Shown here: piece by piece, positions 4,969-64,000 of the stretch | How positions within the stretch are numbered: the first letter of the stretch is position 1 | Layout of the letters: the number at the start of each line of letters is the position of its first letter | NCBI RefSeq assembly: GCF_000282135.1 | Contig: NZ_AKJW01000015.1 | Location: forward strand, 1-64,000 | DNA length: 64,000 nucleotides | Reading direction: 5' to 3' | DNA from: Herbaspirillum sp. CF444 | GTDB taxonomy: Bacteria > Pseudomonadota > Gammaproteobacteria > Burkholderiales > Burkholderiaceae_D | Made by a program: the position numbers and the translations under genes | Notes under the pieces: model-generated | What the model saw: the letters and a program-made list of their open reading frames with translations, nothing else | Told to the model about the DNA's origin: nothing | Databases searched by the model: none

Positions 4969-5178
4969 GGGCGTACTCGGAGCAAGGGCATCCACAGAAT
5001 GGCGGCGCGCAGCGCAAGAAAAGCGTTGCACGTCCGGCAGTTCTCTTTGACAGCGGCAGGGCAAAAGGCCAATTGCCTTGCCGTTGCCGAAGAGCAGGCG
5101 CGTACCGGCAAGGGGCAGGGCGCGCACAAGCTTTGACCGGTACGCGGTTTTTCGTTTTCATTCAATTGGGGAATCACA

Positions 5179-6309: not shown

Positions 6310-6497
6310 TTGCGGCCTTGTTCTCCGGGCCTGATTGCCGGCGGCTTTGAGATTTGTCGATTGTGGTCGGGCCGGTATCCCGATGGCAGTCGACGGATTC
6401 TTTCTTGAGGGAAGCCGCCGGCCAGGCAGCCGGATTGCGGGCATTGCAACGCGCAGGACTCTGCAAATAAAAATTTGCGAATCGAAGGGAGTGGCAA

Positions 6498-58285: not shown

Positions 58286-60121
58286 ATGTCAAACAATAAA
58301 CGCGCTATTCGCAACATCGCCATCATCGCCCACGTTGACCATGGCAAAACCACCCTCGTCGACCAACTGCTGCGTCAGTCGGGTACTTTCCGCGAGAACC
58401 AGCAGGTTGATGCCCGCGTGATGGATTCGAACGATATCGAAAAAGAACGCGGCATCACCATTCTGTCGAAGAACTGTGCCGTGGAATACAAGGGCACCCA
58501 CATCAACATCGTCGATACCCCGGGCCACGCCGACTTCGGTGGTGAAGTGGAGCGCGTGCTGTCGATGGTCGACAGCGTGCTGTTGCTGGTGGATGCGCAA
58601 GAAGGTCCGATGCCGCAAACGCGTTTCGTGACGCGCAAGGCGCTGGCACTGGGTCTGAAGCCTATCGTCGTGGTCAACAAGATCGACCGCGAAAACGCCG
58701 ATCCGCAAAAGGCCGTCAACGCCACCTTCGAACTGTTCGACAAGCTCGGCGCAACCGACGAGCAACTGGATTTCCCAATCGTCTACGCCTCGGGTTTCAA
58801 GGGTTACGCCGGTCTGGAAGACACCGTCCGCGACGGCAACATGGAGCCGCTGTTCGACGCGATCCTGGAACACGTTCCTGCGCGTGAAGATGACCCGGAC
58901 GGTCCGCTGCAACTGCAAATCACTTCGCTGGAATATTCGTCCTACGTCGGCAAGATCGGCGTCGGCCGTATCCTGCGCGGTCGCGTGCGCGGCCTGCAAG
59001 ACGTGGTCTGGATGAACGGTCCCGACGACAAGCCGACCAAGGCGCGCATCAACCAGGTGTTGACCTTCCGCGGCCTGGAACGCGTGCAGGTTGAAGAAGC
59101 GCTGGCCGGCGACATCGTCCTGATCAACGGCATCGAAGAAATCAGCATCGGTTCCACCATCTGTGCACCGGACGCGCCTGAAGGCCTGCCGATGCTCAAG
59201 ATCGACGAACCGACCCTGACCATGAACTTCATGGTCAACAGCTCGCCGCTGGCCGGCCGCGAAGGCAAGTTCGTGACTACGCGTCAGATCCGCGACCGTC
59301 TGGATCGCGAACTGAAGTCCAACATGGCGCTACGCGTCGTGCAGGCGGAAAACGACGACTCGACCTACGAAGTGTCGGGCCGCGGCGAATTGCATCTGAC
59401 CATTCTGATCGAAAACATGCGTCGCGAAGGCTACGAGCTGGCCGTGTCGCGTCCACGCGTGGTGTTCAAGATGGTTGATGGCGTGCGCCACGAGCCGTAT
59501 GAAAACCTGACCGTCGACGTCGAAGAAACCAGCCAGGGCGGCGTCATGGAAGAACTCGGTCGCCGTCGCGGCGATCTGCAAAACATGGAACCGGACGGCA
59601 AGGGTCGCGTCCGTCTGGAATACCGTATTCCTGCTCGCGGCCTGATCGGCTTCCAGGGCGAATTCATGACGCTGACGCGCGGCACCGGCTTGATGAGCCA
59701 CGTGTTCGACGACTACGCGCCGGTGGACAACAGCAAGGGTGAACTCGGCGGCCGTCGCAACGGCGTGCTGATTTCGCAAGACGACGGCGCTGCCGTTGCT
59801 TACGCGATCTGGAAACTGCAAGACCGCGGCCGCATGTTCGTGAGCCACAACGATCCGGTCTACGAAGGCATGATCATCGGTATCCACTCGCGCGACAACG
59901 ATCTGGTCGTCAACCCGATCAAGGGCAAGCAGTTGACCAACGTCCGTTCGTCGGGTACCGACGAAGCCGTGCGCCTGGTGCCGCCGATCGAAATGTCGCT
60001 GGAATACGCGGTTGAATTCATCGACGACGACGAACTGGTTGAAGTCACGCCGAAGAGCATTCGCCTGCGCAAGCGTTTCCTGAAGGAGCATGAGCGTAAA
60101 AAGGCATCCCGCGACGCGTAA
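58286..60121 (+). CDS. typA: Ribosome-associated translational GTPase TypA/BipA
   Basis: A 611-aa GTPase that binds 70S ribosomes under stress and aids 50S assembly. The P-loop region is [20 protein letters not shown], the switch I segment [17 protein letters not shown], and G3/G4 are [14 protein letters not shown] and NKIDR. The C-terminal [20 protein letters not shown] and [20 protein letters not shown] are TypA-specific. ATG 58286 is used. It is followed by a ~600-nt region with terminators and then the dusA remnant. Confidence 0.97.
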
Positions 60122-60327
60122 GATAAGCGGCGTGGCAGTCTGGGCGCAGTTTGCTGCAGCCTGGCCTAGGCTGGAAGGGCGGAGAGAGGGCATCTGGGCA
60201 GTTTGCGAAGTGCTGATATTTGTTTTGTGAATACCTGATATCAGCACAAAAAAGCAGACATTCATGATGCAGTGCCATATAGTTGCACCTGTCTCCTCCA
60301 ATTTCCTCCTAAAGAATTGGATTTAAG

Positions 60328-60359
60328 CCCGCAACCGCAAGGTGAGCGGGTTTTTTTTT
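60328..60359 (+). terminator. Rho-independent terminator after typA
   Basis: Stem CCCGC-ACC / GGT-GCGGG (60328-60350) with GCAA loop and a nine-T run to 60359. Confidence 0.8.
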
Positions 60360-60578
60360 GCCTCGATGGTTTTTATGGCAATCTCTTGCGGGCAGGCGCT
60401 TACGGCGCCATTCTCGAATTGCTGTTGTAGAAAAGTGATGTCATTTGCCTACAGTTTCTGCCGGATTTTTATCCGAGCACCGAAATTGTGCGATGCGAAA
60501 TGACTAATGCTGGTTTGTGGTGCAGAATCACCCCCGCAGTATAAAAATCCTATCTCTCAAGAGGATAGAGGGGACACC

Positions 60579-60608
60579 AGCCCGCAACGTGCAAGCGTTG
60601 CGGGCTTT
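60579..60608 (+). terminator. Hairpin/terminator before dusA
   Basis: Perfect 11-bp arms AGCCCGCAACG / CGTTGCGGGCT (60579-60589, 60596-60606), short T-run interrupted by C. Confidence 0.7.
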
Positions 60609-60718
60609 CTATTTGTAACTCGCCTGCAGGCCTCTCGCTAGGGGCCTCAAGCAAGTTCGACAATGAATATGGTGTGTAGCTTCCCGGCATGATGCTGGGA
60701 TCTCATTAGGAAAAGTGC

Positions 60719-60784
60719 ATGTCTTACGGACCGAGAACAATCAGCGTAGCGCCTATGACGGACTGGACTGAATTAGCTCTGTAA
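60719..60784 (+). pseudogene. dusA: 5' remnant of dusA at a prophage attachment site
   Basis: A 21-codon frame beginning MSYGPRTISVAPMTDWT, with AGGA 7 nt before the ATG, ends in ELAL-TAA. The segment ISVAPMTDWT matches the N-terminus of tRNA-dihydrouridine synthase A (typically VAPMMDWTDRHCR). The match stops abruptly at codon 17 and phage-like sequence follows. The dusA 5' end is a known integration target of tyrosine-integrase prophages; the reconstituted dusA and the integrase are expected at the other end, outside the window. Confidence 0.72.
60746..60772 (+). mobile_element. Probable attL core in dusA; left end of prophage
   Basis: The bases coding VAPMTDWTE (60746-60772) are where host dusA identity ends, so the crossover (att core) should lie within or just after them. 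Everything to the right up to the window end (60785-64000) is interpreted as prophage: small unique genes, PrtN-like regulator, holin-like genes and endolysin, with more AT-rich composition than the left flank up to about 62.6 kb. The exact core needs the other junction. Confidence 0.6.
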
Positions 60785-60948: not shown

Positions 60949-61554
60949 GTGCGCCAATCGGAGAGTCAAAATTTAGAAGCCGCGAGGGTGAAATATGCTG
61001 CGATCAGGGCGACTACACAAACTTACGTTGAGGAAGAGTGGTTAGCGGAGCAACGTGAACGCATAGTGGTGACAGCTTTAAATTCTGACGCTCAGTCCCA
61101 TTTTGATAGGTACTGGCGCAATCATCCCCAGCGCTTGGTTTCTTTTGATTGGTTCGGGAGCATTAAGAAGACTTTGGACAATAGCCATCCGCGTCGCTTA
61201 GAGTTTGCTTTCTGGAAGAATAAGATTTTGTGCGGTCTGGTTGTTGGTCGTATATCCAAAGGCGGTCAGTGGCTCTCTGTGACGCATATTGAAGGATATC
61301 CGGATGCATCGCACCCACTCAAAGGAAAAATTATTGCTTTAGCACTATTTGCTGCTGACGTTTATTCCGTAGCAACAAAAAGTGAGGCTAGAGGATTCCA
61401 GCCACGTGTTCGCCTGTTGGATCCGGTGCCACAGGTCATAGCGGCGTATCAGAATCTAGGTTATAGTGACGTCGTCGTTACAAAAAAGCTTCGTTACATG
61501 ACGAAGCCTTATATCGCAGGAGTTCATCATGAAGACACAACACGCAAAAGTTGA
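60949..61554 (+). CDS. GNAT-like protein, prophage cargo
   Basis: A 201-aa protein starting with GTG (GGGGA just upstream). The C-terminal part resembles a GNAT fold: LEFAFWKNKILCGLVVGRIS, GQWLSVTHIEGYPDASHPLK, then VRLLDPVPQVIAAYQNLGYS as the last strand/helix. The acetyl-CoA pyrophosphate loop R/Q-x-x-G-x-G/A is degenerate (H-P-L-K-G-K), so activity is uncertain. It overlaps the next gene by 26 nt. Codon use and composition are more AT-rich than the chromosome to the left, fitting a transferred phage gene. Confidence 0.65.
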   Translation: MRQSESQNLEAARVKYAAIRATTQTYVEEEWLAEQRERIVVTALNSDAQSHFDRYWRNHPQRLVSFDWFGSIKKTLDNSHPRRLEFAFWKNKILCGLVVGRISKGGQWLSVTHIEGYPDASHPLKGKIIALALFAADVYSVATKSEARGFQPRVRLLDPVPQVIAAYQNLGYSDVVVTKKLRYMTKPYIAGVHHEDTTRKS

Positions 61555-61702
61555 TAGCGGTCCTCGCAAGCTCGCAGGTAATCCTACGACCGCAGCTGTG
61601 GAAGAACTGCGCCGTCGATTCGAGCAAGCAAAAGGTGTCTCTTCATTGAAAGATTTGCTCACGGTAAAGTACGACGGTCCGGAAGTTTCGGGTAAAAATT
61701 AA
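61529..61702 (+). CDS. 57-aa protein overlapping the GNAT-like gene
   Basis: A 57-residue protein, basic N-terminus (MKTQHAKVDSGPRKLAGNPT), a central helix (AVEELRRRFEQAKGVSSLKD) and a short acidic tail. AGGAG lies 6 nt before the ATG at 61529, inside the end of the GNAT-like gene, so it is a genuine translated overlap rather than a shadow. No family was recognised and no DNA-binding motif seen. Its coupling to the upstream gene suggests a functional pair, for example toxin and partner. Confidence 0.6.
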   Translation: MKTQHAKVDSGPRKLAGNPTTAAVEELRRRFEQAKGVSSLKDLLTVKYDGPEVSGKN

Positions 61703-61770: not shown

Positions 61771-62010
61771 TCAAGGTCTGGGCGGTTTGTGAAGCGCTCT
61801 AGCTCGTTCCCGTTGCATGTCAAGGTACTCCCCTACATCCCTAACGTCGGCGACACGGTTGCGCCCCTCTTTGCGAGTTGGTATGGGGAATGCCCCTGCC
61901 GATAGAAGATTGTGTGCGGTTCCGCGCACGACGCCAATCTCGTCACATACTTCTTCGCGCTTCATCGTCAGTCGCTCGTACTTCATTGCGAGGAAAACCG
62001 CTGCTTTCAT
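61771..62010 (-). CDS. PrtN/AlpA-like DNA-binding protein
   Basis: A 79-aa predicted regulator (MKAAVFLAMKYERLTMKREE, VCDEIGVVRGTAHNLLSAGA, FPIPTRKEGRNRVADVRDVG, EYLDMQRERARAL). The order 'FL..Y - vC...g - a.n....G.fPiPt.k - v.DvaeyLd..R' is like the pyocin activator PrtN family, which switches on lysis/late genes of prophages and pyocins. In-frame ATG 62025 is five codons upstream. Its location next to the lysis genes agrees with that role, but the family call is by pattern. Confidence 0.6.
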   Translation of the reverse strand: MKAAVFLAMKYERLTMKREEVCDEIGVVRGTAHNLLSAGAFPIPTRKEGRNRVADVRDVGEYLDMQRERARALHKPPRP

Positions 62011-62044
62011 ATATTTTCGCCACACTCGACGCAGTCACGTTCAA

Positions 62045-62141: not shown

Positions 62142-62609
62142 ATGGATCCAAATGAAATAGGGCAGGCGGTTAGCTTCTTAAATGCTGTCAAAGAAGTCAC
62201 GGCGATTGCGGCACGTTTCAAAGCGCTGTTGGAGACAGCTCCTAAGGCGGAGGCCAACGGCACTGCCAATCGTTTTGAGAGTTTTCAGCTCACGAACGGT
62301 ACGTTCGCCACGGATTTCTTGCTGCAAACAGAGTTCGGCAAGATTGCCGCAGCGTTTGGGCTGGTGAACCATGACAAGGAAATTTACGGTGCATATCAGT
62401 TCTCGTTGGCCGTACTCCCGGATGCGACTGCACCTGAGGAGATAAAATGGGTCAAACTTTCAACGTTGTTCTTTGATAAATTTGGGAACACCGCAAGACC
62501 AGCGCCGTGCGATAGCATCGCGCTCGGCGAGGACGATCCGTCAACCTTCAAGCGCCATTTCTTTGGTAGCTTGATATTGGCTGCTTCGGAAGCTCTGCCA
62601 GTTGCTTGA
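62142..62609 (+). CDS. Unknown 155-aa prophage protein (moron-like)
   Basis: A soluble 155-residue protein of unknown family: MDPNEIGQAVSFLNAVKEVT, FESFQLTNGTFATDFLLQTE, FGKIAAAFGLVNHDKEIYGA. No signal peptide or membrane segment. AAGGTGGGT precedes ATG 62142. The gene has its own extended -10 promoter and is flanked by terminators on both sides (62045-62077 and 62672-62704), the hallmark layout of a phage moron. Such genes often give the lysogen a trait such as exclusion or virulence, but nothing specific can be claimed. Confidence 0.6.
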   Translation: MDPNEIGQAVSFLNAVKEVTAIAARFKALLETAPKAEANGTANRFESFQLTNGTFATDFLLQTEFGKIAAAFGLVNHDKEIYGAYQFSLAVLPDATAPEEIKWVKLSTLFFDKFGNTARPAPCDSIALGEDDPSTFKRHFFGSLILAASEALPVA

Positions 62610-62722: not shown

Positions 62723-62929
62723 ATGATGGCGGGATACCTCACATCGCCGGAACTGATGCGTATGGCGGCAATTCACGATCGCAGTGTGGCGTCACTGATC
62801 GCTGCGACGTTGGTGGTGACGATCCTGAATAAGGGGATTGACTGGGCCGGCAACATGAATTTTGCCGATTTCATTATCAACCTCGGCTCGATGCTGAGCC
62901 GGATGAAAGGAACCAAGAAAGATGAATGA
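62723..62929 (+). CDS. Small phage membrane protein, holin-like
   Basis: A 68-aa protein with one hydrophobic helix (SVASLIAATLVVTILNKGID) and a basic, short C-terminus (MLSRMKGTKKDE). Position immediately before a 3-TM protein and an endolysin suggests a holin or holin accessory. Its stop overlaps the next start (8 nt). Starts at 62723 or 62726; the ribosome binding site is poor. Confidence 0.55.
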   Translation: MMAGYLTSPELMRMAAIHDRSVASLIAATLVVTILNKGIDWAGNMNFADFIINLGSMLSRMKGTKKDE

Positions 62930-63305
62930 GCTTATCCATCCGTACATCGACCTGCAGCGCGTGCTGCTGATCGCTCAGCTGGTCATTTCGCTGCTTGTGG
63001 TCGGCCGGCTGATGTTCTATCGCAAGAAACACGCACGGCATAAGGTCCATATGTCGGTCGTCGCGTACTTGCTTCTGGTGGCCTATGGCTGGACGGCCAT
63101 TCGTATCTTGACGGGCGAATATCTTTCGCCCGTTGACTGGTCCGATTTGGCAGTCAATGCCGCCGTGCTGTTGGCAGTCTTCTATGCCAAGGGCAATATC
63201 GCCCGCTTCCTCATGACGGCGCCCGGCGCGCGGTACAAGGTGAGGGTCTCCGGGCAGTTCCCGCCGCAACGCAATCCAAGTGTTTCAAAGGAGACGAAAC
63301 TATGA
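62922..63305 (+). CDS. Putative 3-TM phage holin
   Basis: A 127-aa protein with three predicted helices (LLIAQLVISLLVVGRLMFY; VVAYLLLVAYGWTAIRILTG; LAVNAAVLLAVFYAKGNIAR) and a charged C-terminus. Encoded just before an endolysin and overlapping it by 4 nt (ATGA), as is typical of a holin that releases endolysin across the inner membrane. Sequence family not recognised with certainty. Confidence 0.68.
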   Translation: MNELIHPYIDLQRVLLIAQLVISLLVVGRLMFYRKKHARHKVHMSVVAYLLLVAYGWTAIRILTGEYLSPVDWSDLAVNAAVLLAVFYAKGNIARFLMTAPGARYKVRVSGQFPPQRNPSVSKETKL

Positions 63306-64000
63306 ACGTGCAGCAACTGCAAGCCATCATGCCCGCCGCCAAGCGGGCATTGTTGTTTTTGGAGCCGTTGAACGCCGCCATGCAGGAGTTCGGCATTCTG
63401 GCGCCGCTTCACCAGGCGATGTTCATTCCGCAGATCGCGGTGGAAACAAGCCAACTGGCCAGGCTCGATGAAAACCTCAGCTACAGCGCGGACGGCCTGG
63501 CCAACACATGGCCGAGTCGCTACGCGCAAAAGGATGGTGCCGGCAACTACGTCAAGGTCACGCCGCCGGCTGCAGCGTCCGACCTGCCAACGCGGCCGTG
63601 CAATGCTCCCAACGACCTAGCTAAATGCCTCGACCGTAACGCAGTAGCGATCGCCAACAATGTCTACGCCAATCGCGGCGGCAATGGGGACGAGGCCAGC
63701 GGCGACGGCTGGATGTTCCGTGGCGCCGGCGGCTTCATGTGCACATTTCATGATGGCCATGCGCAATGTGCTGCTTACTTCGGAATTCCGCTGCACCAGG
63801 TTGGCGACTGGTTGCGCACGCCTGAGGGCGCGATGCGGTCTGCAGGTTGGTACTGGAACGTGAACGGCATGGCTAAGTTTGCCGACGCTGGCGATTTCGA
63901 CGGCGTCTGCGATGTCCTCAATATCGGCCGCAAAACTCAGAAGGTCGGCGATGCCATCGGTTATGCGGCTCGCCTCACACATTACAACCTCGCTCGTCAA
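63302..64000 (+). CDS. GH19 chitinase-like endolysin (partial, runs off window)
   Basis: 233 codons open to the window edge without a stop. The GH19 lysozyme-like fold is shown by AMFIPQIAVETSQLARLDEN (catalytic Glu in the ETxx segment, second Glu in ENLSYS), SADGLANTWPSRY, GWMFRGAGGFMCTFHDGHAQ and MRSAGWYWNVNGMAKFADAG. In usual members the third segment reads FRGRG-x-IQLTG; here it is FRGAGGFMCTF, a clear deviation. It cleaves peptidoglycan for host lysis. Start ATG overlaps the holin stop. Confidence 0.82.
   Translation, partial: MNVQQLQAIMPAAKRALLFLEPLNAAMQEFGILAPLHQAMFIPQIAVETSQLARLDENLSYSADGLANTWPSRYAQKDGAGNYVKVTPPAAASDLPTRPCNAPNDLAKCLDRNAVAIANNVYANRGGNGDEASGDGWMFRGAGGFMCTFHDGHAQCAAYFGIPLHQVGDWLRTPEGAMRSAGWYWNVNGMAKFADAGDFDGVCDVLNIGRKTQKVGDAIGYAARLTHYNLARQ

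What the first reader, a model, noticed from the sequence alone, without database searches (positions are those of the whole stretch)
60719..60784. Prophage integrated in the 5' end of dusA, leaving a 21-codon remnant
The short frame MSYGPRTISVAPMTDWT matches the start of DusA and then ends abruptly, directly followed by lysis-type phage genes. dusA 5' ends are recognised integration sites of a class of tyrosine-integrase prophages and islands. The orientation predicts an integrase and a restored dusA at the far end of the element, beyond 64000.
Basis: partly seen in the sequence, partly recalled or inferred. Interest (0 to 1): 0.72.

Follow-up and report, generated by a model that had tools for sequence, protein, structure and literature searches.

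The report
Phage remnant lodged in dusA gene
The finding is real but of a known kind: a phage-derived element entered the start of the tRNA-modifying gene dusA, left the original start behind and gave the gene a new one, and has since shrunk to a small remnant with probable anti-phage genes.

Summary
Confirmed. Window 60719-60784 is the native 5' end of dusA, cut off by an integrated element; past the window the same contig holds an integrase and a complete dusA with an element-supplied 5' end. Two same-genus empty sites align to both flanks with a 26-bp overlap, giving att cores at 60746-60771 and contig 69425-69450, which match at 20 of 26 positions. The element is 8,679 bp.

It belongs to the known dusA-specific elements (Farrugia et al. 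2015, PMC4482086) but is not an intact prophage. A 32.8-kb tailed prophage at the same site in G011 has the same end order; here head, tail and packaging genes are missing. The integrase frame lacks its usual start and has an in-frame stop near its N-terminus, and its att pair is the most diverged of six, so it is probably immobile. Cargo includes a candidate DUF262+HEPN anti-phage pair.

By-product: tandem 11-bp-period words, probable integrase arm sites, lie at fixed distances from the core in 17 of 24 loci, and the word follows the integrase tree.

The parts
60719..60784 (+). Native dusA 5' remnant, 21 codons; about the first 13 codons are host sequence, the rest element sequence
   Evidence: Colinear with the empty site in G016 and G009; joined flanks read the same as G016 DusA over 37 residues
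60746..60771 (+). attL core, 26 bp, imperfect repeat of attR (attR core at contig 69425-69450, beyond the window)
   Evidence: Overlap of the two flank alignments in G016, 5011-5036, and in G009, 6345-6370; 20/26 identical to contig 69425-69450
60816..60832 (+). Probable arm-type integrase sites of attL: TGTCCA twice, 11 bp apart (the attR counterpart is at contig 69287-69303, beyond the window)
   Evidence: The pattern occurs twice in L005, once per end; 200 shuffles gave mean 0.00; similar position in relatives
60949..61554 (+). Unknown protein, 201 aa
   Evidence: phrog_4350 E 5e-6; no Pfam match; 4 other genomes of 294 in the family have a weak match
61529..61702 (+). Unknown small frame, 57 aa
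   Evidence: ORF list only; no PHROGs or Pfam match
61771..62025 (-). Excisionase-like protein, 84 aa, probable RdfN-type directionality factor
   Evidence: phrog_1300 excisionase E 4e-7; 69-73% identical to genes of G004, G011, G013, G145, the G011 match containing one stop; those of G004, G011 and G013 coincide with PF11112 hits below its cut-off
62142..62609 (+). Unknown protein, 155 aa
   Evidence: No match in PHROGs, PADLOC, NCBIfam or Pfam
62723..62929 (+). Probable holin, 68 aa
   Evidence: phrog_198 E 3e-4; Phage_holin_8 below cut-off
62922..63305 (+). Holin, Phage_holin_3_7
   Evidence: PF05449 E 7.6e-19
63302..64000 (+). Endolysin, 236 aa, runs on to contig 64012. The further genes of the element lie beyond the window and are listed with contig coordinates in the full report.
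   Evidence: phrog_181 E 3.9e-58; for the rest of the contig

Best explanation
A temperate phage with a dusA-specific tyrosine integrase recombined its attP with a 26-bp core in the 5' end of dusA. The native start was left upstream as the 21-codon remnant, and the phage's attP arm gave the body of dusA a new 5' end starting at GTG. The element later lost its head, tail and packaging genes. What is left is 8,679 bp: both att ends with arm-type sites, an excisionase-like gene, the lysis cassette, DUF2806 and a DUF262+HEPN pair, and an integrase gene with a damaged N-terminus. It is probably locked in place. Shown by sequence: both junctions, the empty site, the family of the integrase, the absence of recognisable structural genes, the integrase lesion. 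Inferred: that the ancestor was a full phage like the one in G011, that the element no longer excises, that the pair acts in defence, that DusA is still made.
For: Integrase and complete dusA on the same contig. Empty sites in G016 and G009, each with a 26-bp overlap of the flanks; joined flanks give G016's DusA start exactly over 37 residues. dusA lies beside the integrase in 21 of 22 examined loci with integrases of at least 45% identity and in 8 of 8 confirmed hits from genome contigs. Both ends carry the same arm word. G011's 32.8-kb element at the same site has terminase, portal, protease, tape measure, baseplate and tail fibre (8 of 10 scanned frames matched), an excisionase-like gene near attL and lysis genes near the integrase. 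The 25 phage rows listed (of 284 records) include BcepMigl, BcepIL02, DC1 and H66, which Farrugia et al. name as carriers. The integrase N-terminus has a stop here and none in that stretch in the 33 others compared.
Against: The cores agree at only 20 of 26 positions with no exact run over 5 bp, where the other five pairs have 23-25 of 26 and runs of 13-23: attL may have drifted, or the two ends may have different origins. The rest of the integrase still looks constrained: dN/dS 0.06-0.13 in the four comparisons that could be computed, against 0.05-0.07 among G004, G011 and G013, with saturated dS. The 84-aa protein gave no PF11112 (RdfN domain) match in this genome. The deletion is inferred from a relative with different cargo, not from a direct ancestor.
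Confidence: 0.85

Rival explanations
1. Composite: attL and attR come from two successive dusA islands of the same class, and the DNA between them was lost by deletion, so the 8.7-kb unit was never one element.
For: Core identity is the lowest of six pairs. Stacked islands with extra dusA starts exist at this locus in G145 and G374 and tandem islands in Vibrio (PMC8409611, passage).
Against: Both ends carry the same TGTCCA arm word, and the excisionase-like gene and the integrase are both nearest to those of G145, G011, G013 and G004. No third dusA start was found between the ends (pattern search).
Confidence: 0.15
2. A compact mobile element, possibly a phage satellite, that still excises and spreads with a helper phage.
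For: Both att ends, an excisionase-like gene and an integrase frame with catalytic motifs are present; G296 carries an 11.6-kb element with well-matched cores at the same site.
Against: Integrase N-terminus is damaged; cores mismatch; no capsid, packaging or replication family was matched in the scans; no Terminase_6N match in the genome (that one family only); no relative of its DUF262 protein confirmed in IMG/VR.
Confidence: 0.1
3. Partial duplication of dusA or a chance short frame, unrelated to a mobile element.
For: A partial tandem copy of dusA exists in G008.
Against: Here the upstream copy stops at the att core, and 20 genomes of the genus have typA and dusA less than 1 kb apart, while an integrase-led unit lies between them here.
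Confidence: 0.01

Closest known systems
dusA-specific genomic islands and prophages with dusA-associated integrases (Farrugia et al. 2015, PMC4482086)
   Same: Integrase gene 5' to 5' with dusA, imperfect att repeats in the 5' end of dusA, new dusA 5' end from the element, native 5' end at the far boundary.
   Different: 8.7 kb against a mean of 42.6 kb (range 4.8-184.8 kb in 94 islands); damaged integrase N-terminus. The words 'arm', 'arm-type' and 'IHF' do not occur in that paper's main text.
dusA-specific integrative elements of Vibrio, IMEVchUSA3 (PMC8409611)
   Same: Integrase and directionality factor lie on opposite sides of attP; [quoted passage not shown]
   Different: Those are IncC-mobilizable islands; this one has phage lysis genes, and no conjugation family was matched in the scans.
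   Same: Same site, same end order, integrase 72% and excisionase-like protein 71% identical.
   Different: Has head, tail and packaging genes; cargo beside the integrase is a DNA methylase, a protein without a match and a PIN_8 protein.
PD-T4-2 anti-phage system (DUF262 plus HEPN; Vassallo et al. 2022, PMC9519451, passages only)
   Same: Two adjacent genes, DUF262 and HEPN; PD-T4-2_A E 3.5e-53.
   Different: PADLOC's NsnA scores higher (4.1e-66); the HEPN protein has no PADLOC match.
'Grounded' prophages (PMC6379469, seen only as a search listing)
   Same: By its title, prophages that no longer leave the chromosome.
   Different: Not read; no point-by-point comparison was made.

Membership tests
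dusA-specific integrative elements (Farrugia et al. 2015) | dusA-associated tyrosine integrase whose 5' end adjoins the 5' end of dusA | tested here: met
   Divergent, 125 bp from the integrase frame to the GTG; relatives of the integrase sit beside dusA in 21 of 22 examined loci at 45% identity or more
dusA-specific integrative elements (Farrugia et al. 2015) | Imperfect attL/attR repeat of about 21-28 bp in the 5' end of dusA | tested here: met
   26 bp, 20 of 26 identical
dusA-specific integrative elements (Farrugia et al. 2015) | Element supplies a new dusA 5' end; the native 5' end marks the other boundary | tested here: met
dusA-specific integrative elements (Farrugia et al. 2015) | Catalytic motifs of tyrosine recombinases | tested here: met
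   AMRL, HDLRH, GHKDW, ARYT present in order; which residues are catalytic is recalled
dusA-specific integrative elements (Farrugia et al. 2015) | PrtN/RdfN homologue (60 of 94 islands in that paper) | tested here: inconclusive
   84-aa protein matches PHROG excisionases; homologues in G004, G011 and G013 match PF11112 at E 0.0015-0.004, below cut-off; no match in this genome at E 0.01
dusA-specific integrative elements (Farrugia et al. 2015) | Excises as a circle | not testable with these tools
   Needs PCR; integrase N-terminus and cores argue against it
Complete temperate prophage | Head, tail and packaging genes | tested here: not met
   None matched between the att cores; present in G011
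PD-T4-2 defence system | DUF262 protein plus HEPN partner of the system's own families | tested here: inconclusive
   First protein matches PD-T4-2_A but NsnA better; partner matches HEPN in Pfam, no PADLOC model
PD-T4-2 defence system | Protects against phage | not testable with these tools
   No experiment

The most novel reading that the evidence does not exclude
The element is a grounded island: a dusA phage reduced to its two ends and its cargo, fixed in the chromosome by loss of a working integrase and a drifted attL, and kept because its DUF262+HEPN pair (and perhaps DUF2806) protects the host. In addition, dusA integrases form a natural series in which the core is held nearly constant by dusA while each integrase clade has its own 11-bp-period arm word, so arm recognition could be read off by comparing N-terminal domains with words.
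Probability: 0.25. Interest if true: 0.45.

Novelty: new member of a known kind. Interest (0 to 1): 0.28.

Why it matters
It settles one element's borders at base level and corrects 'prophage' to 'remnant'. The series of dusA integrases with one shared core and several arm words may not be described: one search found no paper in the held library with dusA, arm-type and integrase together, and the two main papers do not use 'arm-type'; subscription papers are mostly not covered. It is a ready data set for asking how tyrosine integrases choose arm sites. The cargo adds a candidate anti-phage pair at a site that in this genus also holds a restriction-modification enzyme (G013) and a DNA methylase with a PIN_8 protein (G011).

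Tried and rejected
Exact direct repeat: the att pair was not among the 20 of 34 families that the repeat finder showed; alignment to empty sites revealed it. tRNA target: none in the window or in L005. Defence genes as a rule for small dusA elements: 10 of the larger frames of G012, Collimonas and G296 gave no PADLOC match, so I make no such rule. DUF262 relatives in IMG/VR: none confirmed of 6 pattern matches. HEPN homologues: 2 other genomes of 294. First 201-aa gene in phages: no match. DUF2806 in print: 2 papers, listing only. NsnA in print: the 8 listed of 436 papers concern other things, by title. dN/dS for relaxed selection: saturated, inconclusive. The query 'p111' was in the wrong frame (5 stops) and nothing was drawn from it. 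The G374 att sites were left out of the pair comparison because the pairing is ambiguous. The arm-like pattern in G017 beside a terminator-like stretch is unresolved.

Full report
Observation. The window is bases 1-64000 of contig C15 (72,760 bases) of a 5.6-Mb genome. At 60719 a 21-codon frame begins that reads as the start of DusA. A complete dusA lies on the same contig at 69341-70405, and between them are an integrase and phage-type genes. The only other strong Dus match in the genome is on C89; it is 28% identical to this DusA. Two further weak matches lie on C58.

Parts beyond the window, in contig coordinates (the numbering continues that of the window): endolysin to 64012; Rz 64058-64633 (+) with a possible nested Rz1 at 64302-64547; DUF2806 protein 64558-65601 (-), PF10987 E 1.8e-44; HEPN protein 66239-66931 (-), PF18735 E 5.3e-15; DUF262/GmrSD_N protein 66928-68022 (-), PF03235 E 8.7e-31; integrase 68229-69215 (-), PF00589 E 9.4e-21; arm-type repeats 69287-69303; dusA 69341-70405 (+), PF01207 E 4.5e-82, with the attR core at 69425-69450.

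Which side is native. In G016 and G009, same-genus genomes with dusA right after typA, the region from the typA end through dusA is uninterrupted. Window 60100-60771 aligns to it at 87-88%, and the contig from 69425 onward at 91-92%. The two alignments overlap by 26 bases in each genome: 5011-5036 in G016, 6345-6370 in G009. So the remnant is the host's own dusA start, and the start now attached to dusA came with the element: the 27 bases before the core match G016 at 26 of 27 on the left side, but the 27 bases before the right core match the host start at only 12 of 27. Joining the flanks gives 37 residues identical to G016's DusA. The element is 8,679 bp from core to core. Its G+C is 0.507, against 0.596 for typA and 0.608 for the stretch after attR.

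Census of the site in the genus, 34 genomes. Twenty are empty, with typA less than 1 kb upstream of dusA. Five carry dusA-adjacent integrase sequence: G000, G004, G011 and G013 over nearly the whole length, and G012 truncated. Six have a wider gap without an integrase match: G002, G014, G017, G029, G030 (2.9-13.3 kb) and G032 (no typA within the stretch fetched). Three cannot be read because the contig ends: G001, G022, G028.

The integrase. Of 392 family genomes, 37 have a match at E 1e-40 or better, this one included. That call lists 40 places; I examined the 30 that came with loci. In 23 of the 30, dusA lies beside the integrase: 21 of 22 at 45% identity or more, 2 of 8 below that. The exception among the 22 (G374) lies beside a dusA start left within stacked islands. 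The 18 weaker genus matches (L041-L058) have dusA beside them once, in G012. Eight of eight confirmed loci from genome contigs have dusA beside it. In phage records, 284 match; the 25 listed are 36-39% identical and include BcepMigl, BcepIL02, DC1 and H66, which Farrugia et al. name. Compared with 33 other integrases, the frame here lacks the first 16 residues: the usual start position does not hold a common start codon, and an in-frame stop lies in that stretch, while none of the 33 others has a stop there. Of those others, G157 has a stop further in, and G012 and Collimonas silvisoli have short frames; L065 runs off its contig. The catalytic motifs remain here. dN/dS is 0.06-0.13 in the four comparisons that could be computed (two could not), slightly above the 0.05-0.07 among G004, G011 and G013, with saturated dS. 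So the damage is recent, or a shortened protein still has some function; I cannot separate these.

The att sites. Core identity is 20/26 here against 23/26 (G011), 24/26 (G013), 23/26 (G012), 25/26 (G145) and 25/26 (G296); the longest exact run is 5 here and 13-23 in the others. Because tyrosine recombinases need matching overlap sequence (recalled), this argues against efficient excision. In the outer arms, TGTCCA occurs twice, 11 bp apart, once at each end of this element: 2 matches in 16.8 kb, none in 200 shuffles. In six elements whose two ends I compared (G000, G011, G013, G012, G145, G296), the same word is recognisable in both arms, at about +70/+81 and -138/-127 from the reference codon for the five TGTCCA elements. 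It is not perfect: in G012 the attR arm has one copy, in G011 one attL copy deviates, and in G000 one attL copy is weaker. I then took 26 loci, nearly all with the integrase beside dusA, and looked for an exact 7-mer repeated at 10-12 bp in the strip -150 to -90. Two (L091, L098) had no recognisable core and were dropped; 17 of the other 24 have such a repeat and 7 do not, against 0.22 expected from mononucleotide shuffles, which do not allow for relatedness. The word differs by clade (GTCCA, GTAGCA, GATG, CCGTA, GTGGCA and others). On a tree of 22 integrases (the 26 without L048, L066, L091, L098) the words need 8 changes, where 7 is the minimum and shuffles average 15.1, none of 200 as low; GATG and GTAGCA are not single clades on that tree. 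I assigned the words by eye, some to loci that failed the exact-repeat test, and near-copies raise such clustering. The reading as integrase arm sites is inference.

What the element is. Order: attL, 201-aa and 57-aa unknown genes, excisionase-like gene, unknown gene, two holins, endolysin, Rz, DUF2806, HEPN, DUF262, integrase, attR. G011 carries a 32.8-kb element at the same site with a native-type dusA start at attL, an excisionase-like gene 1.6 kb in, then frames that match terminase, portal, protease, tape measure, baseplate and tail fibre (10 of 37 predicted frames scanned, 8 matched), then lysis genes, cargo and integrase. G013's 32.9-kb element has the same kind of ends. Of five of its proteins scanned with PADLOC and Pfam, three match restriction or candidate defence models (one of them, PDC-S02, over part of its length), one is a ShlB-type secretion protein and one has no match; PHROGs was not run on it. 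The likeliest history here is loss of the middle of a G011-like phage. A composite of two islands is the main rival, since islands stack at dusA in G145 and G374 and in Vibrio (passage).

Effect on dusA. The only ATG, GTG or TTG in frame before the core in the occupied gene is the GTG at 69341. It puts 26 codons before the conserved SVAPM, against 8 in the native gene. A GTG at the same distance is present in G011, G013, G012, G004, G145, G157 and Collimonas. In Vibrio an element of this family was shown to give dusA a new promoter and an altered N-terminus, with lower expression (PMC8409611, passages). For this strain expression is inferred.

Cargo. The DUF262 protein matches PADLOC NsnA (4.1e-66) and PD-T4-2_A (3.5e-53) and carries VDGVQR, close to the (I/V)DGQQR motif described in PMC10952713 (passage). 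Its neighbour is a HEPN protein with RNQVAH. PD-T4-2 is listed with DUF262 and with HEPN in that review. The HEPN protein is rare: 3 of 294 family genomes, this one included. PADLOC gave nothing for HEPN or DUF2806. Defence is a prediction.

Literature seen. Farrugia et al. 2015 (PMC4482086): parts 1-4 of 7 of the text and term searches. PMC8409611: passages. PMC10952713 and PMC9519451: passages. Others in listings only.

Verdict. The finding is right in observation and in its main reading. It is a new member of a known kind, in a decayed state.

Noticed in passing
60290-60359 (+): Betaproteobacteria toxic small RNA, RF02278, 53.2 bits against a gathering score of 50, between typA and the dusA remnant.
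   Followed up: partly
about 60480-60612: A second intergenic block, ending in a terminator-like hairpin, is nearly unchanged in G016 and G009 while the region as a whole is 87-88% alike; candidate small RNA, no Rfam match at E 0.1.
   Followed up: no
L005:14589-14692 (-) and L005:5650-5756 (+): Rfam matches below the gathering score: V_AS9 (40.8 of 50 bits, antisense within ribBA) and STnc430 (32.4 of 47 bits, inside the element); probably chance.
   Followed up: no
G145 C1:4348000-4407999 (L115-L117) and G374 C26:13000-32999 (L122): Stacked dusA islands: two integrases in each, with one (G145) and two (G374) extra dusA starts besides the full gene.
   Followed up: partly
G002, G014, G017, G029, G030, G032 (L074, L075, L081, L082, L085, L083): typA-dusA gaps of 2.9 kb or more (for G032 no typA in the stretch) without an integrase match; possible old islands that lost the integrase.
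   Followed up: no
G008 C707 (L088:2744-4073): A partial dusA copy of 76 codons lies just upstream of the full gene, with a near-identical leader; a real tandem duplication or an assembly fault in an 820-contig genome.
   Followed up: no
strips -150 to -90 from the dusA core, 24 loci: Clade-specific 11-bp-period repeats at fixed distance from the dusA core in 17 of 24.
   Followed up: partly
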